Source: Bacteroidota bacterium
Lineage (GTDB): Bacteria; Bacteroidota; Ignavibacteria; Kapaibacteriales; UBA2268
DNA: 64,000 nt
Assembly (NCBI GenBank): GCA_004322215.1
Contig: SCSM01000011.1
Span: 248,001-312,000, forward strand
Direction of reading: 5' to 3'
Numbering within the stretch: position 1 is the first letter of the stretch; every line of letters starts with the position of its first letter. The notes below the pieces were generated by a model, which worked only from the letters and a program-made list of their open reading frames with translations, made no database searches and had not been told where the DNA came from. Below are positions 10,871 through 19,745 of the stretch, in pieces. Made by a program: the position numbers and the translations under genes.

Positions 10871-13800
10871 TTATTTATTATCAATAATTTTTATTACAAT
10901 GCTCCTGTTTTTTTCTCTGCCTTCCGGAGTTAAATTGTCGCCTAAAGGATTTGCCGTACCTAAGGGCTTGCATATAATCCTGGTCTTTTCTATACCTGAT
11001 GTTATCAGGAATTCTTCTGCAACTTTGCATCGTTTGTTTGATAAATCAAAAGTAACTTCCGCCGTGCTGAAATTATCAGTACGCCCTGTTATTTCCACTA
11101 TGTTTTTTTGATTTTCTTTCAGGTATTGACTTACCAGCTCCAAATATTTAAGTAAACCACTGCTTAATTCAAAATCCCTTGTATTCTTATACAAAAAAGT
11201 TTTTTCTTTCAAAATTTCTTGAACCATTTTTGCGGGTTCTGCTTTTTCTTCATTGGGTACATTATAATTGCTTTTTACAATTTTTTCTTGTTTATTCTTA
11301 ACATCAATTGCTATTTTTGAAGTATCTCTGAAATCTGCTTTAGCAGTTGAAATTGTTGAGAGCTTTTCTTTCGAAATTGTACGTGGATAGAGTGCAAAAC
11401 CTAAGCCCGAAACATAATCTCCATCGGCAAGACTGCGAACTTCAAAATCAATTAGCTGCGGATTTGACTCGCAATCAAGTAATTTCAATTGTAATGAATC
11501 GACATAAATAATATAATTACCCGGCATCATCCCGCTTTTGTAAAAACTCCCATCAGAAAAGACAGGTACAGTAACCTCATCTTTAGTCTCCTTATTTACG
11601 ATATGTACTTTTACACCACCCTGTCCGCTTGTATCAGTTCCGCTGACTTTCAATATTATTCCTTCAACAATACCTGTCATATAACAAGGAATGTCAATAC
11701 TCTTGTATGCATTCGGTTCAGCAACAAAAGAGAATTCAGTCATTTTAGGAACAATAAATGGATTTTTAAAAGATTCCTTTTTAACAAATACATTATATTT
11801 ACCACCCGGCATCAAATTATATATCCTTTTTCCTCCGCTAACATCAGAACTTTGTTCTATTGTTCCATTAGGAACATAAAAGTCAACTCCTTTCACTTCT
11901 TCCTCATCATCCTGGTAATCACCGTCGTTGTTTCTGTCAACGAAAAATCTTACAGTTGCCGCACCACTTCCCATAAATGTTTTGCCCGATGGATTGCTGA
12001 AATATAGATTGTATTTCTGTGAATCGAAACCCAAAATTCCACTCAAATCTTCATTAAAACTATTATTACCTTTCAAATCTGATGAACAACCGGCATTTGC
12101 TATTACACTTGTTAAATTCAGCATCAAGGATAGATTGACCGATGTCATTTTTGATATTAAATCCCTTCTGAGATTTCCCTGCAAGTTTGCTCCTTTGGCT
12201 ATTTCCTGCTGTACTGAGAAATCAAGATTCATAAACCTACCTACATTCATATCATATATACTTCCTATTGTAAATCGAGTGTTACCTAAAAATTTCAGAA
12301 ATTTGGGTTTATTGTACCAGCTAATATCCAATTGAGGATTAAGATTGTGATTGATATCCATCGAATTTTTTATTTTATCTTTAGTCAAATAAGCATAGTA
12401 TCTTCCGGTGAGCATGATTGAGTATAAATTAAAATTAAGATAAGCATTCAGATTTGTAGTATTAACATCCTTATAGTCACTATTGATAGCCCTGAGAGTA
12501 AGATTAACAGGTAATCCGAGGATTCTCGGTATTCCACCGTTTATTTCAATCGTATTGAACTCCTGCCCTTTTGCACTATCCACAGATTTGTTGACACTAT
12601 AAATTATGTCATAAGAACCGAAATTCTCTGAGTTAAGCCGCAAACCCCCTTTGTAGAATCTGTCTGGCGAGAAAACTCCGCTAAGTAGCAGATTTCCTGT
12701 TATTCTTAGGGAAGCAGAACCAATTAAATCATAAGCTTTCTGCTTATAAGTTTTCGAATAATCAACAGAACCCGTCAGCCAGCTTGTTACTCCTGCCGAG
12801 AGTTTTCCATTAAAGATATAATCACCGCTGATTGTTTCCTTTCCACCGCTTAATGTATAGAAAAATTTTCCGGGTGCAATGTATTCCGATGGAATTGATA
12901 TGTAATCCGTTTTCATGTAATATTCACCATTGGGACCATAGAATTTCAGCTCGACATTGGTGTTACCATACTTAACAGGAAGCTCAAATCTATAATAGCC
13001 GATATTATCCGAACGAGTCTGGCTATACAATTGATTGTTGACATATAGCTCAACCTGCCAATCCGGCTCTATTCTGTCAGAGATTATGAAATTAGAAAAT
13101 GAAGTAGGCATTCTTGTCGTTTCATTTGAGAACTGAATCCCCTGCAATATTTTACTTTGGGATAAAGTATTCAGCACTGATACCTGACGTATCGAAGTGT
13201 TTGTTATATAATCGACGGAAACCTGGTTTAAATAATCATTCTGACCGAAAAAATAACGCCAGCGGAGGTTATAATCATTTAATCCCGACTTCGAAAATTC
13301 CTCATAACTGCCGAAAGCATTGTATTGCATTTCGCCCCCTAACAACTGCAATCCGACATTTGCCATATATGTGTAATTCCTGTTCTGACGGCTTTGCGAA
13401 GCTCCAAGCCGGTACTCGAGCATTCCACCGTCGAGCACCTTAAAGCTGCTGCCTGAAATCTCGGGCAGTGAAGCAGTTTCATAATCTTCCTTTGGTGTCA
13501 TTAATGTATATTTTTTTTGCCTCTTCATTTCCCTGAGCAATGGCATTTCGATTGTGCTTTTTATATATACTAACAGCTTGTTTTGATAGACCGCAGTGCT
13601 GAAAAGAAATGTCTTTTCCAAAATATTAGGTAAGATAAAGTAATCGAGTTCGCTCCTGAAATAAGTGCTGTCTAAAATAGTTTTCTTCTTGCCGTTAATG
13701 TCAATTATATAGTTTTCCTTGAAATTAATTTCGTAGGTAGTATCAGGATTAGCCACATATCCGGTAATTATACCATCGCCTTCGGTTTTATTGAAAATTC

Positions 13801-13999
13801 CGAGAAATGACAATACATCGAGCAAAGGAATATACACCGAATCCTTATAGATATAAGCAGAATATTCAAATGAAAAACCGGCATAATTCATAGAGTAGAT
13901 GCCTTCGATTGCATCCCGGGGAATATTCGATTGACCCTGGGATTCAAGAGTTTGTAAACAGAAAAGTACGGATATTAAGATTACTATGAAAATTTTCAA
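10871..13999 (-). CDS. usher-like outer-membrane protein with C-terminal OmpA domain
   Basis: A 1042-residue exported protein; the start is TTG, the only start compatible with the signal peptide (KIFIVILISVLFCLQ). After an N-terminal domain (about 25-150) comes a long strand-rich region interrupted near residues 305-375 by QVELYVNNQLYSQTR...YRFELPVKYGNTNVELKFYG, ending YIAPGKFFYTLSGG. This is the pattern of the plug and following strand of fimbrial ushers. Residues about 680-830 hold Ig/SdrD-like beta-sandwich modules with a Ca-loop-like stretch (FFVDRNNDGDYQDDEEE). The last 100 residues are an OmpA peptidoglycan-binding domain (EITGRTDN, LSNKRCKVAEEFL, GREKNRS). Classical ushers lack this domain. 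The chaperone gene lies upstream, 81 bases away. I infer pilus secretion anchored to the cell wall. Confidence 0.72.
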   Translation of the reverse strand: MKIFIVILISVLFCLQTLESQGQSNIPRDAIEGIYSMNYAGFSFEYSAYIYKDSVYIPLLDVLSFLGIFNKTEGDGIITGYVANPDTTYEINFKENYIIDINGKKKTILDSTYFRSELDYFILPNILEKTFLFSTAVYQNKLLVYIKSTIEMPLLREMKRQKKYTLMTPKEDYETASLPEISGSSFKVLDGGMLEYRLGASQSRQNRNYTYMANVGLQLLGGEMQYNAFGSYEEFSKSGLNDYNLRWRYFFGQNDYLNQVSVDYITNTSIRQVSVLNTLSQSKILQGIQFSNETTRMPTSFSNFIISDRIEPDWQVELYVNNQLYSQTRSDNIGYYRFELPVKYGNTNVELKFYGPNGEYYMKTDYISIPSEYIAPGKFFYTLSGGKETISGDYIFNGKLSAGVTSWLTGSVDYSKTYKQKAYDLIGSASLRITGNLLLSGVFSPDRFYKGGLRLNSENFGSYDIIYSVNKSVDSAKGQEFNTIEINGGIPRILGLPVNLTLRAINSDYKDVNTTNLNAYLNFNLYSIMLTGRYYAYLTKDKIKNSMDINHNLNPQLDISWYNKPKFLKFLGNTRFTIGSIYDMNVGRFMNLDFSVQQEIAKGANLQGNLRRDLISKMTSVNLSLMLNLTSVIANAGCSSDLKGNNSFNEDLSGILGFDSQKYNLYFSNPSGKTFMGSGAATVRFFVDRNNDGDYQDDEEEVKGVDFYVPNGTIEQSSDVSGGKRIYNLMPGGKYNVFVKKESFKNPFIVPKMTEFSFVAEPNAYKSIDIPCYMTGIVEGIILKVSGTDTSGQGGVKVHIVNKETKDEVTVPVFSDGSFYKSGMMPGNYIIYVDSLQLKLLDCESNPQLIDFEVRSLADGDYVSGLGFALYPRTISKEKLSTISTAKADFRDTSKIAIDVKNKQEKIVKSNYNVPNEEKAEPAKMVQEILKEKTFLYKNTRDFELSSGLLKYLELVSQYLKENQKNIVEITGRTDNFSTAEVTFDLSNKRCKVAEEFLITSGIEKTRIICKPLGTANPLGDNLTPEGREKNRSIVIKIIDNK

Positions 14000-14080: not shown

Positions 14081-14911
14081 TTACTCTACGACAAAATCGA
14101 AGGTCTTCGTTACCTGCTCGAAGGGAACTCTCATCTCATCGGGAATGTCCGGCTGATCGCTTGTCAATGTCAACTCTGCTTTGTATTTCCCCGGTTTCAG
14201 TTTATCCTTCGATACGGGGAAAGCCCTCGTTGCCGAGAAATACAACGGGATTTTGTCTTCCCTGTTTTCGACTTCATCCCCCTCGCTGTTCGTAATTTTC
14301 AGCTTTGCAGTGCCGAGGAAAGGAGCATTCCCATCTCTTACGAAACTGAAATTCAGCCGTATATGAGTGCTGTCTGTGCCGGTGGTGAGCGAAGTGATAT
14401 CAACTTTTGTGTTCAATGAGCCCTTCTCGAAAAACAGAACGGTCATAAACACAAATTTGAATGAAAGACCGATTTTCACTTTATCGCCGAGATTTGTTGT
14501 GTCAATCTGTTTTTGAACATCCTTCGATGTAGTGGCTATTCTCGTGTAATACATTCCATCAGGAATTTTCCCGATGTTTTTAATCAGGAAGCGGATAACC
14601 TGGTCTTTCTTCGGCTGCAGAACAAATTTCTTTGGGAAAATCGTCAGGTAAGGAATCACCGAATTAGAGCTTTCGGCAACGCTGTCTTTGTATTGAGTGA
14701 AAACATTGCCGTTTGAATCGTAAGCCATATAGCCGAACTTCGGCTCGATATCTATTTCCTTCGGGTCATCGCCCTGGTTCAGCACGGTCATACTGCCGGA
14801 ACGGGTTTTGGCATCTATGAATACGGCAGGAGGATAGATTGCGACCTGTGCATAAATAACTCCGGCACTTAAAAGTAATAAAATAACCGCTACAAATATT
14901 CTACTTTTCAT
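14081..14911 (-). CDS. fimbrial periplasmic chaperone (PapD-like)
   Basis: A 276-residue secreted protein with signal peptide (VAVILLLLSAGVIYA). The N-terminal domain has the order of a pilus chaperone: VAIYPPAVFIDAKTRSGSMTVLNQGDDP, then YLTIFPKKFVLQPKKDQVIRFLIKN, then PDGMYYTRIA. The strand VIRFLI corresponds to the G1 donor strand, and a basic residue precedes it as in PapD. The C-terminal Ig-like domain ends in LKPGKYKAELTL. The protein should bind pilin-like subunits in the periplasm and deliver them to the usher-like protein encoded next downstream. The GC content here is visibly higher than in the neighbouring AT-rich genes, which may reflect transfer. The start is 9 bases behind the stop of the preceding gene. 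Confidence 0.8.
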   Translation of the reverse strand: MKSRIFVAVILLLLSAGVIYAQVAIYPPAVFIDAKTRSGSMTVLNQGDDPKEIDIEPKFGYMAYDSNGNVFTQYKDSVAESSNSVIPYLTIFPKKFVLQPKKDQVIRFLIKNIGKIPDGMYYTRIATTSKDVQKQIDTTNLGDKVKIGLSFKFVFMTVLFFEKGSLNTKVDITSLTTGTDSTHIRLNFSFVRDGNAPFLGTAKLKITNSEGDEVENREDKIPLYFSATRAFPVSKDKLKPGKYKAELTLTSDQPDIPDEMRVPFEQVTKTFDFVVE

Positions 14912-15440: not shown

Positions 15441-15464
15441 TTAGCTCTTTAGCTAAATTGCTTT
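15441..15464. repeat. TTTTTAGCT / GCTAAATTGCT repeat fragment
   Basis: A short element just downstream of the DUF559 gene (TTTTTAGCTCTTTAGC then TAAATTGCTTTT) belongs to the same repeat family as the arrays at 16484-16581 and 21313-21370. Confidence 0.55.
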
Positions 15465-15823
15465 TATTTATTATTCCCAACCTGGCAATTAATTTGTCCC
15501 ATCACGTTACGGATTTTTCTTCTTACATCCCTATTTTGAATCCGTAAGATTTTATAACCTAATTTTTTAAAATATTTATCCCTTGCCATGTCTTTTTCAT
15601 TCTTTTCATCATTATTATTCTGTCCACCGTCGAGAACTATAATCAGTTTTGCTTTTGGGCAAAAAAAATCAACTCTGTAATTTCCAATTCTTTTTTGTCT
15701 GAAAAATTGAGCATCTCCTTTTTGTTCTGTTCTCAATTTTGACCATAAAATGATTTCCGCTCCCGTCATGCTTGTTCTCGGGAGCTTTGTTATTTTCTTT
15801 AACTTGATTTTATAATTAAACAT
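15464..15823 (-). CDS. DUF559 (Vsr-like) endonuclease-domain protein with altered active-site motif
   Basis: A 119-residue protein matching the DUF559 family in order: MTGAEIILWSKLR, FFRQKRIGNYRVDFFCP, KAKLIIVLDGGQ, and GYKILRIQNRDV near the end. The family has a PD-(D/E)xK nuclease fold. The motif after the core is usually IELDGGQH, but here it reads IVLDGGQN, so an expected Glu is Val and the His is Asn. The nuclease may therefore be inactive. The gene interrupts the fimbrial locus, has no evident link to it, and is flanked on both sides by short repeats of the kinds found elsewhere in this region, which fits an insertion. Confidence 0.8.
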   Translation of the reverse strand: MFNYKIKLKKITKLPRTSMTGAEIILWSKLRTEQKGDAQFFRQKRIGNYRVDFFCPKAKLIIVLDGGQNNNDEKNEKDMARDKYFKKLGYKILRIQNRDVRRKIRNVMGQINCQVGNNK

Positions 15824-16011: not shown

Positions 16012-16464
16012 TTAAAACGCCATGTCCACCTCCAGCACCTGCTCGAAGCTTCGGGGTCCTGAGGAGGCATACCTCGCCACATGAATCTGATTTATGGTTA
16101 CAGTAACCGTTATTACATTGCTCAAACGGTAATGGCGGCAATGGGACAGCAAGCTGATGCTGTTGCCGTTGTTCACCGACCACTCGGTTTCGATTTTCAC
16201 ATCGTTTTCGTCGCCGGTTTCGGAGCCGCGGTTGTCTAATATTATATCAATCGGCTTCTTCCTGTTCAATGTAATTGTGAATGTAATGGAATTATCAGGT
16301 GGAAATACGGGAGATGACCAGCCCTGAACAAATACACCGAGATTGACGTTGCCGCTCACCGATATTGAATATGGTGGCACCCTGTCGTCGTCGTGGCAGA
16401 GAAGCTGCTCACGCGACAAAAGCAACACAATCACTATTACAATATATCTGAAAATAATTTTCAA
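16012..16464 (-). CDS. pilin-like secreted protein D
   Basis: A 150-residue exported protein (signal IFRYIVIVIVLLLSREQLLC). The only start compatible with the signal is TTG at 16464, and no Shine-Dalgarno site precedes it. The start codon lies inside a TTTTCAA-type repeat, so the repeat supplies the beginning of the gene. The mature chain starts with YSISVSGNVNLGVFVQGW, comparable to the LGEFV/LGTFV element of the neighbouring pilin-like proteins, and ends with SGPRSFEQVLEVDMAF, the same SxxxFxQxVxVxY-type final strand. I class it as a divergent DUF4402/pilin-like subunit. GC content is higher than in its neighbours. Confidence 0.6.
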   Translation of the reverse strand: MKIIFRYIVIVIVLLLSREQLLCHDDDRVPPYSISVSGNVNLGVFVQGWSSPVFPPDNSITFTITLNRKKPIDIILDNRGSETGDENDVKIETEWSVNNGNSISLLSHCRHYRLSNVITVTVTINQIHVARYASSGPRSFEQVLEVDMAF

Positions 16465-16697: not shown

Positions 16698-17192
16698 TTA
16701 CAAACCGCCTTGATAATTTGCAATCACATGCTGTGTAAATGACTTGGGCCCAGGCGTAGAACCCGTTGTAAACGTTCCCGGGTCTGCTTTAATAGTAAAC
16801 TTTCCTCCCGATTCATGCAAAGTTGCCGTTTGGTCGTAACCTACTGTAAGCGTTCCACCATCATGTTTCCAGGTAAGTGTTATTGACGCACCTGTATTTG
16901 CATCGTCAGTCAAGCTCTGCATTATTTTATAATGAAAAGTATAGTTCGGCTGTCCTGCTATGATAAACTGGAAATCCGGAATACTTGTAAGACTATAAGC
17001 TGTCGAGCAAACTACAAATGTGCCAAGAAACGAATCACCATCTGATGGAACATAAGTGAATGATATCGGAATTATTACAGTTGCATCAAAATGCCCTTCT
17101 CCTGTTACCGGGTCAGGACAATAATCACAAGCAAAAGAATTTACTGCAAAAGCTAAAAATAATATTATCAAAATCAAAGAATATTTCTTCAT
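16698..17192 (-). CDS. pilin-like secreted protein C
   Basis: I use the ATG at 17192, which starts a signal peptide (MKKYSLILIILFLAFAVNSF) and follows a GGAG site; an in-frame upstream start adds eight residues. The mature protein of about 140 residues contains GHFDATVIIPISFTYVPSDG then FLGTFVVC, and ends GPKSFTQHVIANYQGGL. This order of elements matches the DUF4402-like proteins A and B encoded upstream and suggests a pilin fold completed by an incoming donor strand. It is probably a structural or minor subunit handled by the PapD-like chaperone. Confidence 0.65.
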   Translation of the reverse strand: MKKYSLILIILFLAFAVNSFACDYCPDPVTGEGHFDATVIIPISFTYVPSDGDSFLGTFVVCSTAYSLTSIPDFQFIIAGQPNYTFHYKIMQSLTDDANTGASITLTWKHDGGTLTVGYDQTATLHESGGKFTIKADPGTFTTGSTPGPKSFTQHVIANYQGGL

Positions 17193-17301
17193 ATATTTCT
17201 CCGTTAAAATTTTCAATAAGAATCAATACATTAATATTATTGATTATCATCGCTACCTGAAAATTTTTTCAAATCTTCGAATGCTCAACCTTCATTCTTT
17301 T

Positions 17302-17457: not shown

Positions 17458-18060
17458 CTATAATATACCATCATTATAAGATACTGTTACTGTTTGATAA
17501 AACTTATGCCACCCTGATGTAGCATCCGTATCAATAATTACATCAGTATAATAAGCTCTGATTTCAAATTCACCTAAACCAATATAAGGGCCCGATTCCA
17601 TTGGATCTCCTAATATATGACTAATAGATGGGTCATAAAGTAGAAAAGGTCCAGTACCTCCTATTCTATATCTCCAAGTCATTCTGAGTACAACACCATC
17701 ACCAACATCATCTGGCTGTTCAGATATACTACTAGTCATTGAAATGCTAATCGTGCCATTAAATGAATGATTAGCTTCTCCAATAATTTGAAACGTTGTT
17801 AACATTTCAGATTCAGGATAACCTAAATCAAGCAAATTAAATTCAACTTGTGATGTAGCATTTTTAGAAAATACCAGACTTGGGTCAGAGACACCAGAAG
17901 CAGGTACTACATTTATACTCAAAGGGTCTATTAACGAGGTTTTAAAGGTACCTGAACCAGTTTTATCAGCGTCACCGTTGACAAATACATCTGCAATAGA
18001 AGACACATAAAAAGTAAACAGAACAGTAAACATTACTATCAAAAATTTTACTTTTTTCAT
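17458..18060 (-). CDS. pilin-like secreted protein B (DUF4402-like)
   Basis: A 200-residue protein starting at an ATG behind GAGG, with a signal peptide (KFLIVMFTVLFTFYVSSIA). The mature part opens with VNGDADKTGSGTFKTSLIDPLSINVVPASG, closely like protein A (DANKTGTGNFKCTIIDPLGITTTPTSG), and ends HKFYQTVTVSYNDGIL. It is about 45 residues longer than A because of an insertion in the middle. The DADKTG/DANKTG and IDPL elements link it to DUF4402-type surface subunits. It is most likely a paralogue of A and part of the fibre. Confidence 0.7.
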   Translation of the reverse strand: MKKVKFLIVMFTVLFTFYVSSIADVFVNGDADKTGSGTFKTSLIDPLSINVVPASGVSDPSLVFSKNATSQVEFNLLDLGYPESEMLTTFQIIGEANHSFNGTISISMTSSISEQPDDVGDGVVLRMTWRYRIGGTGPFLLYDPSISHILGDPMESGPYIGLGEFEIRAYYTDVIIDTDATSGWHKFYQTVTVSYNDGIL

Positions 18061-18116: not shown

Positions 18117-18584
18117 TTACAGGCTTCCATTATAATCAACAACCACTGTCTGTGTAAAACTTATTGATCCATCTCCAGTACCAGTTGTTAGTGTATTTGC
18201 TGTAGCAGTTATTGTATAGGTACCAGTTCCAGACAATGTTGCTGCAGTCGTAGCACCAACAGTTGCATCCCAAGAAATTGATAATGTGGCTCCACCACTT
18301 GTTTCAACTTCAGTTATTTTATAATAAAAACCATGACTAGCTTCACCTGTAATATTAAAAGCAATAGTATTTGGTGCTGAAAGTGTGTAAGCCGCTGTCT
18401 GTTTAACAAATTCTCCTAAATCAACTTCGCCACTTGTTGGTGTTGTGGTAATTCCTAGTGGATCAATAATGGTGCATTTAAAATTTCCTGTACCAGTTTT
18501 ATTTGCATCACCCCATACATCGGCATTAGCATTAATAGCAAAAGCTACAAAAAGGACTGCGAGAATTACTGCGAATTTTTTCAT
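18117..18584 (-). CDS. pilin-like secreted protein A (DUF4402-like, probable major subunit)
   Basis: A 155-residue protein with a clean signal peptide (KKFAVILAVLFVAFAINANA) behind a GGAG site. The mature protein is small, Thr/Ser/Gly-rich and strand-like: FKCTIIDPLGITTTPTSGEVDLGEFV in the first half, then ITGEASHGFYYKITEVE, and a final strand SISFTQTVVVDYNGSL. This fits DUF4402/spore-coat-U-like pilins that are folded by PapD-type chaperones. It is the first gene of the cluster and has the longest upstream region, which suggests it is the most expressed subunit. The identity as pilin is inferred from fold pattern plus the linked chaperone and usher-like genes. Confidence 0.7.
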   Translation of the reverse strand: MKKFAVILAVLFVAFAINANADVWGDANKTGTGNFKCTIIDPLGITTTPTSGEVDLGEFVKQTAAYTLSAPNTIAFNITGEASHGFYYKITEVETSGGATLSISWDATVGATTAATLSGTGTYTITATANTLTTGTGDGSISFTQTVVVDYNGSL

Positions 18585-18850
18585 AATAAACTCCTAAAAA
18601 ATTGTTAATAAAAATAATTATAAAAAGATTTTTTTTTCTGGTTTACCCCTTTCCCCTTTTTTGGTTCACGGCGGGACCGCTCGCTAATATAAAAAAGACG
18701 CTACCTCAGGATTTAGGGTTCCCGAAATCAAAGAACACTCAGCCCGGTGTAAAGAAAATTACACAGGACGCCGATAAATCCGCTAAGCGTATGCTATAAA
18801 AATCTTGAAATTTCGATGAAAATTGGGAATTCTTTTAAGGAACCATAGAA
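18585..18850. other. structured intergenic region, possible 5' leader of pilin A
   Basis: No convincing gene is present. The part from about 18660 to 18800 is near 46% GC, far above the surrounding AT-rich spacers. On the minus strand it forms hairpins GTGTAA/TTACAC (18747-18764) and GATTT/AAATC with GG/CC inside (18710-18729). It also contains CGCTACCTCA (18699-18708), repeated in the small RNA at 18936-18945. It may be a long regulatory leader of the pilin A mRNA. Confidence 0.4.
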
Positions 18851-18855
18851 AAGTA

Positions 18856-18887
18856 TTTGCAAAATGATGTAAAAAACATTATATTTG
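18856..18887 (+). promoter_or_regulatory. full-consensus Bacteroidota promoter of the small RNA
   Basis: TTTG (18856-18859), a 20-base spacer and TATATTTG (18880-18887) match the phylum consensus TTTG-N19-21-TAnnTTTG exactly. Transcription should start near 18893. Confidence 0.75.
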
Positions 18888-18892
18888 CGAAC

Positions 18893-18962
18893 TGTGAGTT
18901 TTGCTACGGCGAACTCCTTATGTGCGGCTATGAGTCGCTACCTCATAGCCGTACTTTTTTTT
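18893..18962 (+). ncRNA. predicted small RNA of about 70 nt
   Basis: The stretch between an exact Bacteroidota-type promoter and a strong intrinsic terminator holds no reading frame. It folds as two hairpins: GAGTT (18896-18900) with AACTC (18912-18916), and the terminator stem with a 7-base loop TCGCTAC. Between them is CTCCTTATG, which is complementary to Shine-Dalgarno sequences (AAGGAG). The loop motif TCGCTACC is shared with intergenic DNA upstream of pilin-like gene C and, in part, of gene A, so pairing with those mRNAs is possible. No known RNA family is recognised. Confidence 0.65.
18922..18962 (+). terminator. intrinsic terminator of the small RNA
   Basis: A 13-bp stem (GTGCGGCTATGAG with CTCATAGCCGTAC, one G-T pair) with a 7-base loop is followed directly by eight T residues (18955-18962). 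Confidence 0.85.
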
Positions 18963-19445
18963 CATTTAATTTCTTCTGATTTTATTTTCTCCGTTCTCTT
19001 TTTTTTAAAAAAAACAATACTTTTTTTATTCACATTTTATCAACAATGTTATCAACATTTTCTACACATAAAAAAACAAAAAAAGGGGATGGATTTTTGT
19101 AACCGATTTGTTAAAAAAAGTTAAAAAAAACCTAACCCCGCAATCTGATTAATTGCACTTTAATCTTTATTTTTTTGTTCATATTTTCGCTACCCTATGA
19201 ATAGGGGGAGCAAATATAAGTTATTGAAAAACAAAAAGCAAGCATTTTTTTTAAAATTTAAATAATTCCGAATTTGTTATCGCAAACTAACTTTTAATTT
19301 AATATTTAGTAACACTTATAAACAAAATCAATTCAAACGATTAGAAAATCGGACTCAATCATCTTTTGTGGAAAAAATAATTTTTATTTTGAGAGCGATT
19401 TTGAAGAAAAAAATGAAATTAAATTACTGTGCGGTAATCAGCAAG
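18963..19445. other. AT-rich non-coding stretch with DnaA-box-like sites
   Basis: No gene is seen. It holds two copies of TTATCAACA (19037-19045, 19049-19057), a TGTGGAAAA (19367-19375, reverse complement TTTTCCACA) and a small hairpin CCCTA-TGAA-TAGGG (19193-19206) preceded by TCGCTACC. The first two motifs differ from the DnaA box TTATCCACA by one base each. Confidence 0.45.
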
Positions 19446-19745
19446 TCAATTTTTTTCTTCTGAAATTTCCACAAGTTCAATTTCATCAGCCGGTTTTTTG
19501 GGTGGTCTCCCGGGCTTCGGTTCGTCGAAAAGCCCCATCAGTCCTTTGTTTTCCCAGCCACGGAGCCAGTTGCTGACAGTGTCGCGATGCACGTTGAATA
19601 TGCTGGCGATGTCGGCAATGGAATAATTGTTCGAGCTGAGCAGTATGGCATTAGCCCTGAGCCGCACTTTGTTGGAAGGACAATTCTTCATAAGCAATTT
19701 CAGCTTATCTTCTTCGCCGTCTTTTAATTCATCAACAAATCTCAT
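19446..19745 (-). CDS. orphan IS630-type helix-turn-helix protein (transposase N-terminal domain only)
   Basis: A 99-residue protein that matches the N-terminal DNA-binding part of IS630-family transposases: RLRANAILLSSNNYSIADIASIF, then VHRDTVSNWLRGWENKG, then LMGLFDEPKPGRPPK. A full transposase would continue with a DDE catalytic domain of about 200 residues, but here the frame ends after an acidic tail (EIELVEISEEKN), and no DDE remnant is visible downstream. It is either a decayed insertion sequence or a domesticated DNA-binding protein. The gene is GC-richer than the flanks. No terminal inverted repeats were found. No ribosome binding site is obvious. Confidence 0.7.
   Translation of the reverse strand: MRFVDELKDGEEDKLKLLMKNCPSNKVRLRANAILLSSNNYSIADIASIFNVHRDTVSNWLRGWENKGLMGLFDEPKPGRPPKKPADEIELVEISEEKN

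What the first reader, a model, noticed from the sequence alone, without database searches (positions are those of the whole stretch)
18856..18962. A complete small RNA gene with consensus promoter, two hairpins and CUCCUU motif
An exact TTTG-N20-TATATTTG promoter is followed within 80 bases by a 13-bp terminator stem with T8, and the interval has no reading frame. The transcript would carry CTCCTT, complementary to ribosome binding sites, between two hairpins. This looks like an uncharacterised regulatory RNA.
Basis: partly seen in the sequence, partly recalled or inferred. Interest (0 to 1): 0.66.

Follow-up and report, generated by a model that had tools for sequence, protein, structure and literature searches.

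The report
Small RNA beside a pilus-like operon
This is very probably a real small RNA of about 70 letters, kept nearly unchanged in three related bacteria, and one of its loops matches control regions of the neighbouring surface-fibre genes, which it probably regulates.

Summary
The promoter, two hairpins and T8 terminator exist as described. A promoter plus strong terminator at this spacing arose in 1 of 200 shuffles. The gene is single-copy and sits beside the same operon in 2 of the 3 other species of its genus; the third has a contig break there. It is 91% identical to each, above most flanking stretches. The terminator stem shows one double compensatory change and two G-C/G-U exchanges that pair only as + strand RNA. 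No Rfam family matches; nothing convincing was found elsewhere in the order.

The invariant terminator loop (GUCGCUACC) is complementary to GGUAGCG in the leader of the divergent first pilin-like gene (three species) and upstream of another pilin-like gene of the operon (two species). Of 55 full loop complements in the genome, 53 lie over long reading frames; the other two are the RNA's own antisense and the second pilin site.

I read it as a base-pairing RNA controlling the adjacent chaperone-usher-like operon, analogous to Bacteroides DonS. Transcription and regulation are unproven.

The parts
18856..18887 (+). Bacteroidota-type promoter TTTG-N20-TATATTTG of the sRNA
   Evidence: Exact match; same spacing in G002 (TTTG-N20-TAAATTTG) and G001 (CTTG-N20-TAATTTTG)
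18893..18962 (+). Predicted sRNA, about 70 nt (start and end inferred)
   Evidence: Promoter and terminator positions; 68 of 75 bases identical in G001 and in G002 over 18889-18963. Covariance-model hits of 101-104 bits in these three genomes, from which the model was built; no others above 26 bits
18896..18916 (+). Hairpin 1 GAGUUUUGC-loop-GCGAACUC
   Evidence: stem invariant, loop UACG in two species and GUCA in the third. For G002 the minimum-energy fold pairs GUGAG with CUUAC instead
18914..18919 (+). CUCCUU; first three bases paired in hairpin 1
18922..18954 (+). Hairpin 2 / intrinsic terminator, 13 pairs, followed by T8
   Evidence: one compensatory double change, two G-C/G-U exchanges, no broken pairs in three species
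18935..18945 (+). Terminator loop and adjoining stem bases UCGCUACCUCA: predicted seed
   Evidence: First ten bases invariant; best accessibility-corrected contact with the leader in all three species
18699..18708 (-). Target site 1, UGAGGUAGCG, in the leader of the first pilin-like gene (3' end 115 nt before its start)
   Evidence: 10 nt complementary in G000, 9 in G002, 8 in G001
17249..17257 (-). Target site 2, GGUAGCGAU, 3' end 57 nt before the ATG of pilin-like gene 3
   Evidence: Strongest contact among 56 upstream regions; kept in G002 at -56
18588..18595 (-). Shine-Dalgarno region AGGAGUUU of the first pilin-like gene, complementary to GAACUCCU
   Evidence: weaker evidence, common motif
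19188..19194 (-). Possible further site GGUAGCG near the 5' end of the predicted long leader
   Evidence: GGUUGCG in G002, so not conserved
19211..19242 (-). Opposing promoter CTTG-N20-TATATTTG pointing at the pilin-like genes
   Evidence: Conserved in G002 as TTTG-N20-TATATTTG; G001 contig ends before it
18117..18584 (-). Pilin-like gene 1 (155 aa)
   Evidence: Relatives of 47-51% identity next to the sRNA in G001 and G002; no Pfam family at E 0.01
16698..17216 (-). Pilin-like gene 3, paralogue of gene 1 (likely ATG at 17192)
14081..14911 (-). Chaperone-like gene (weak PapD_N similarity, below cut-off)
10871..13999 (-). Usher-like large protein with C-terminal OmpA domain
   Evidence: OmpA by Pfam; usher role inferred from position and size

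Best explanation
The interval encodes a small regulatory RNA of about 70 nt: its own housekeeping-type promoter, a 5' hairpin, and a terminator hairpin whose 7-nt loop is the pairing seed. It lies divergent from, and probably antisense within the long 5' leader of, a chaperone-usher-like surface-fibre operon. Its loop (GUCGCUACC) pairs with GGUAGCG sites in that operon's mRNA: one in the leader of the first pilin-like gene, one just upstream of the third. If the mRNA starts at the opposing promoter at 19211-19242, the whole sRNA is also perfectly complementary to part of the leader. Most likely it represses, or makes discoordinate, expression of these subunits by binding nascent or mature mRNA. 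Shown: the sequence elements, conservation, position, strand-specific pairing and the specific complementarity. Inferred: transcription, duplex formation and the sign of regulation.
For: Promoter and terminator combination in 1 of 200 shuffles. 91% identity in each of two congeners, against 0.62 in the adjacent HTH gene and 0.39-0.66 in most flanking stretches of G002. All 63 pair cells stay paired, with one double compensatory change. The + strand fold is more stable than the - strand fold in 3 of 3 species. Beside the same operon in 3 of 3 species where the place can be read. Best leader contact is the terminator loop in 3 of 3 species; shuffled leaders as good in 8, 3 and 7 of 500. Of 56 upstream regions (the pilin-like genes' own among them) the four best are exactly pilin-like genes 1 and 3 in two species. 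In six non-coding stretches of the operon (1287 nt) the only sRNA 8-mers with a sense-strand complement overlap the loop, and no 8-mer has one on the opposite strand. GAGGTAGCG: 7 in the genome, 2 here, the other 5 over reading frames; G002: 6, 2 here, 4 over frames. GGTAGCGRY: 55 in the genome, 53 over long frames, the other 2 here.
Against: No expression data. Only three homologues, all from one genus, so covariation is thin: 186 of 500 shuffles reach it. In G001 the first gene's leader and two leader blocks are also well kept (0.79, 0.83 and 0.91), so the RNA does not stand out there as it does in G002. The minimum-energy fold of the G002 RNA does not form hairpin 1 as drawn. Net contact energy is modest (-5.8 to -7.0 kcal/mol). 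The loop motif was partly chosen after looking at the sequence. At 7 bases the picture is less clean: AACTCCT also finds a sense complement and three other 7-mers find one each on the opposite strand. The sites are 57-115 nt before start codons, so direct ribosome blocking is not obvious. No Hfq was found in 4 of 4 genomes. Site 2 is absent from the G001 contig, whose third pilin-like gene is different, and the 19188 site is not conserved. In G001 the site-1 match is 8 nt only.
Confidence: 0.6

Rival explanations
1. It is a simple cis-antisense RNA: its only function is full-length pairing with the overlapping leader transcribed from the opposing promoter at 19211-19242; the loop sites are incidental.
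For: Opposing promoter conserved in G002; nearer to the first pilin-like gene the scan gave only weaker candidates (8 of 10 matching positions), none at a matching place in another species. DonS-type precedent in Bacteroides (passages of PMC7366714).
Against: Does not explain the conserved GGUAGCG at 18699 and 17249, or why the 9-base loop complements outside reading frames are confined to this operon.
Confidence: 0.2
2. GGUAGCG on the - strand is a recognition motif for an RNA- or DNA-binding protein acting on the operon; the + strand hairpin is secondary.
For: Five of six GGTAGCG in the window lie between 15322 and 19194, all on the - strand; the antisense of hairpin 2 would also present GGUAGCG in a loop.
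Against: A complete + strand transcription unit is conserved, and the wobble pairs fit only + strand RNA. The shared motif coincides with the sRNA loop.
Confidence: 0.12
3. A Shine-Dalgarno-mimic RNA: CUCCUU sequesters many mRNAs' ribosome sites, or mimics the 16S rRNA tail, as a global regulator.
For: CUCCUU invariant; SD-like motifs before 14 of 42 ORFs against 1 of 42 in a control stretch; 8-pair match to the pilin-1 SD.
Against: CUC is paired in hairpin 1; this contact is not among the six best printed for any of the three species in the accessibility-corrected search; the genus-restricted distribution is odd for a global regulator.
Confidence: 0.08
4. A small protein gene, or an isolated terminator with no regulatory role.
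For: An open frame exists through the RNA in all three species.
Against: 6 of 9 changed codons are non-synonymous; the ORF list shows no convincing + strand gene ending just upstream that would need a terminator; the RNA is kept at 91%.
Confidence: 0.04

Closest known systems
DonS and DonS-like PUL-associated antisense RNAs (Bacteroides)
   Same: Short RNA (78-128 nt for the DonS family; about 70 here) divergently encoded to a surface-protein gene; no obvious Hfq in Bacteroides or here (passages of PMC7366714)
   Different: Neighbour is a pilus-like operon, not susC; here discrete loop complements also occur at separate sites in the operon; sequence relationship to DonS not tested
PilR antisense RNA of Synechocystis
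   Same: Antisense RNA that lowers one pilin of an operon (abstract of PMC5924778)
   Different: [quoted passage not shown] different phylum and pilus type
PapR of uropathogenic E. coli
   Same: sRNA controlling a fimbrial system (abstract of PMC4546395)
   Different: Found among Hfq-bound RNAs, trans-acting, represses the phase regulator gene papI
Plasmid copy-number antisense RNAs such as ctRNA/RNAI (mechanism recalled)
   Same: Compact hairpins whose loop starts pairing with a leader RNA
   Different: No plasmid context was examined; only a sub-threshold ctRNA_pGA1 score (19.4 bits against 45)

Membership tests
Any Rfam 15 family | Score above the family's gathering threshold | tested here: not met
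   no match over threshold at 18580-19450
DonS-like divergent antisense RNA | Encoded divergent/antisense to the head of a surface operon | tested here: met
   Divergent. Antisense overlap with the mRNA depends on the unmapped mRNA start
DonS-like divergent antisense RNA | Target is a susC homologue of a polysaccharide utilisation locus | tested here: not met
   Neighbouring proteins give no such Pfam match; they look pilin-, chaperone- and usher-like
DonS-like divergent antisense RNA | Represses the neighbouring gene | not testable with these tools
   Needs expression data
Base-pairing intergenic sRNA with intrinsic terminator | Own promoter, terminator, non-coding, conserved structure | tested here: met
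Base-pairing intergenic sRNA with intrinsic terminator | Detected transcript | not testable with these tools
Hfq-dependent sRNA | Host encodes Hfq | tested here: not met
   0 of 4 genus genomes (all drafts); control genomes ring in 5 of 14

The most novel reading that the evidence does not exclude
A Hfq-independent small RNA that uses its own terminator loop as the seed and contacts several sites along one polycistronic mRNA, setting the ratio of individual pilin subunits within a chaperone-usher-like operon; a new RNA family of Ignavibacteria-type Bacteroidota.
Probability: 0.33. Interest if true: 0.7.

Novelty: new variant of a known kind. Interest (0 to 1): 0.55.

Why it matters
Two searches of the held library (Ignavibacteria + small RNA + promoter; Ignavibacteriae + noncoding RNA) found no paper, so regulatory RNAs of this group look little studied. 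This locus gives a small RNA, a target operon and exact pairing sites, so compensatory mutation tests can be designed directly. If true it would extend the DonS principle (a short divergent RNA controlling a surface operon without Hfq) to pili, and would show a terminator loop serving as a seed.

Tried and rejected
Coding gene: rejected on codon changes. Known RNA family: none in Rfam over threshold; SNORD42, PyrR and ctRNA_pGA1 scored below theirs. Wider family: R1 hits outside the genus scored 16-26 bits against 101-104 for the three it was built from. I looked at the letters of the 7 in the family: by eye none has hairpin 1, CUCCUU and a T-tailed terminator together. The one more in the order lies just after a gene and looks like its terminator. 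These wide searches used stricter filters that can lose weak matches. Viral contigs: none with the hairpin-1 pattern. Absence in G003: not accepted as loss, because the contig with its chaperone gene ends 1.9 kb upstream of that gene, although G003 also has no pilin-1 match at E 1e-4 anywhere. A first duplex calculation with gapped duplexes and approximate shuffles gave 32, 6 and 8 of 300 shuffles as good; it was replaced by the accessibility-corrected one. Leader as a riboswitch: stretches at 18661-18706 and 18766-18800 are conserved, but the - strand leader does not fold better than shuffles (18600-18800, z -0.41) and nothing matches in Rfam. Site-2 context elsewhere: of four genus genomes only G000 and G002 have exact matches; G001 has one with 2 mismatches that I did not follow. 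Identification of the chaperone: no PDB match by sequence; by profile one chain at E 0.55, called ubiquitin-like.

Full report
What is there. The + strand holds TTTG-N20-TATATTTG at 18856-18887, then GAGUUUUGC-UACG-GCGAACUC (18896-18916), a CUUAU linker, and a 13-pair hairpin (18922-18954) followed by eight T. The bacteroidal consensus (TTTG near -33, TAnnTTTG at -7) is as stated in the introduction passage of PMC7366714. The promoter alone is not significant here (4 found, 4.27 expected), but a promoter of this kind followed by a strong terminator within 20-200 nt is: one place in the window, 1 of 200 shuffles. The fold of 71 nt has z -5.47.

Whose genome. The window lies in an unnamed 4.2 Mb draft genome. 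A scan of one genome for each of 84,980 species for the hairpin-1 pattern gave 2 stretches, titled 'Bacteroidetes bacterium isolate WY4.bin46' and 'Ignavibacteriae bacterium isolate NC_groundwater_1893...' (the window's own record may be left out there). Their contig lengths equal those of G001 and G002. No Hfq was found in the 4 genus genomes.

Distribution. The element is single-copy in its genome (the other 39 listed matches are pieces of 14-40 bases at E 0.04 or worse). Of 54 family genomes 3 have it at 101-104 bits, the three the model was built from; 7 more have hits of 16-23 bits whose letters I read and which by eye do not share the layout. Of 123 order genomes one further hit passed E 0.001, at 25.8 bits, and it lies just after a gene and looks like its terminator. 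The genus has four species held. The fourth, G003, has the chaperone gene of the neighbouring operon, but that contig ends 1.9 kb upstream of it; G003 also has no pilin-1 match. It cannot be scored.

Conservation. G000 against G002 and against G001 is 68 of 75 identical (0.91) over the RNA. Against G002 the other non-coding stretches run from 0.39 to 0.66, except the second leader block (0.83), the sRNA promoter (0.76) and the opposing promoter (0.86); the HTH gene is 0.62. The 0.39 for leader block A there is an alignment artefact of an insertion; read by eye that block is conserved. Against G001, which can be compared on one side only, two stretches are 0.54 and 0.64 and the promoter 0.55, but the gene-near leader is 0.79 and the two blocks 0.83 and 0.91, so the RNA is not the only conserved piece. 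All 21 pairs are kept in all three sequences. One pair changes on both sides (U-A to A-U) and two change between G-C and G-U, which are pairs on the + strand but C-A mismatches on the other. With three sequences this is weak as covariation (186 of 500 shuffles reach it) but it indicates the strand. The + fold is more stable in 3 of 3. Hairpin 1 keeps its stem while its loop changes from UACG to GUCA; the minimum-energy fold of the G002 RNA, however, pairs GUGAG with CUUAC instead.

Not a protein gene. A GTG frame is open in all three, but codon changes are mostly non-synonymous (4 of 5, 2 of 4) and the tail after the stem is a base longer in the relatives, which shifts the frame beyond the terminator.

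Neighbourhood. The - strand carries small proteins with signal-peptide-like starts, judged by eye (18117-18584, 17458-18060, 16698-17216, 16012-16464), a chaperone-like protein (14081-14911; PapD_N at E 0.081, below cut-off; 5 of 14 homologues show it at E up to 1, best 0.013) and a 1042-aa protein with a C-terminal OmpA domain in the usher position. The small proteins match no Pfam family at E 0.01. 'Pilin-like' and 'chaperone-usher-like' are therefore inferences. The sRNA sits at the head of this operon in all three species; the gene on its other side is shared with G002, while the G001 contig ends there. An opposing promoter (19211-19242) conserved in G002 points at these genes; if used, the mRNA would have a leader of about 620 nt that includes the antisense of the sRNA.

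Target evidence. With opening energies included, the best contact of the sRNA with the 264 nt before the first gene plus its first 21 nt is the terminator loop CGCUACC with GGUAGCG in all three species: -5.8, -7.0 and -6.8 kcal/mol for G000, G002 and G001. Shuffled leaders do as well in 8, 3 and 7 of 500. I then ran the same score over 56 upstream regions from the window and the G002 contig, which include the pilin-like genes themselves. The four best are pilin-like genes 1 and 3 of both species; the next is -3.5 for the G000 and G002 RNAs and -5.3 for the G001 RNA. The second site, GGUAGCGAU, had not been noticed before this test. In six non-coding stretches of the operon (1287 nt) the only sRNA 8-mers with a sense-strand complement overlap the loop, and no 8-mer has one on the opposite strand; with 7-mers AACTCCT also finds one in sense, and three others find one each on the opposite strand. 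GGTAGCG occurs 6 times in the window, all on the - strand, 5 of them between 15322 and 19194 (one inside a reading frame, one the sRNA's own antisense), against 1.43 expected; 1 of 100 shuffles has as many.

Genome-wide specificity. GAGGTAGCG occurs 7 times in 4.2 Mb: the sRNA itself, leader site 1, four in sense frames and one opposite a frame (stop-to-stop frames of at least 80 aa). In G002 it occurs 6 times: two here, four in frames (the G001 and G003 matches were listed but not classified). The full loop complement with G-U allowed (GGTAGCGRY, which does not include leader site 1) occurs 55 times: 34 in long sense frames, 19 opposite long frames (at least 120 aa), 2 outside, namely the sRNA's own antisense and pilin site 2. 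So, outside long frames, these 9-base loop complements occur only in this operon. The shorter GGTAGCG was not classified genome-wide. The motif was chosen after looking, so I give no formal probability.

The CUCCUU idea. GAACUCCU can pair with AGGAGUUU at the first pilin-like gene's ribosome site, which is identical in three species. But the first half of CUCCUU is in a stem, and the mRNA motif recurs (30 places with at most 1 mismatch in the genome, reversed-pattern control 8). It may be a second contact; it is not the best-supported one.

Comparison. The nearest precedent is DonS, described in PMC7366714 (passages) as one of a family of 78-128 nt cis-antisense RNAs divergent to susC homologues that lower their expression. 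PilR (abstract) and PapR (abstract) are sRNAs acting on pili or fimbriae elsewhere. I found no report of this RNA; only the paper searches stand behind that, and I read listings, two abstracts and passages of one paper.

Verdict. RNA gene real: about 0.85. Acts on the adjacent operon by base pairing: about 0.65. Repression rather than activation: little better than a guess, by analogy with DonS.

Noticed in passing
19188-19242, - strand: Opposing promoter with a short hairpin right after the predicted start (CCCUAUUCAUAGGG; CCCUGAUUACAGGG in G002, a stem that seems to covary). Could be the pilus mRNA start or a second small RNA.
   Followed up: partly
18661-18706 and 18766-18800: Two further conserved blocks in the pilin-1 leader, with a variable hairpin between them; G002 has a sizeable insertion between the blocks. 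No Rfam match over threshold.
   Followed up: partly
15464-15823, - strand: A DUF559 gene sits inside the pilin-like gene cluster; a similar protein is at the like place in G002 (L069 14338-14736, seen in the ORF list).
   Followed up: no
10871-13999, - strand: The usher-like protein ends in an OmpA domain (E 1.1e-11), unusual for ushers as far as I recall.
   Followed up: no
L070 about 1640-1760 and 2350-2520: GTGTTGAGT-type minisatellite arrays between pilin-like genes in G001.
   Followed up: no
window-wide: 14 of 42 ORFs carry an SD-like 4-mer against 1 of 42 in a control stretch, unlike the SD-lacking Bacteroidetes described in the start of the abstract of PMC6847099 (search listing).
   Followed up: partly
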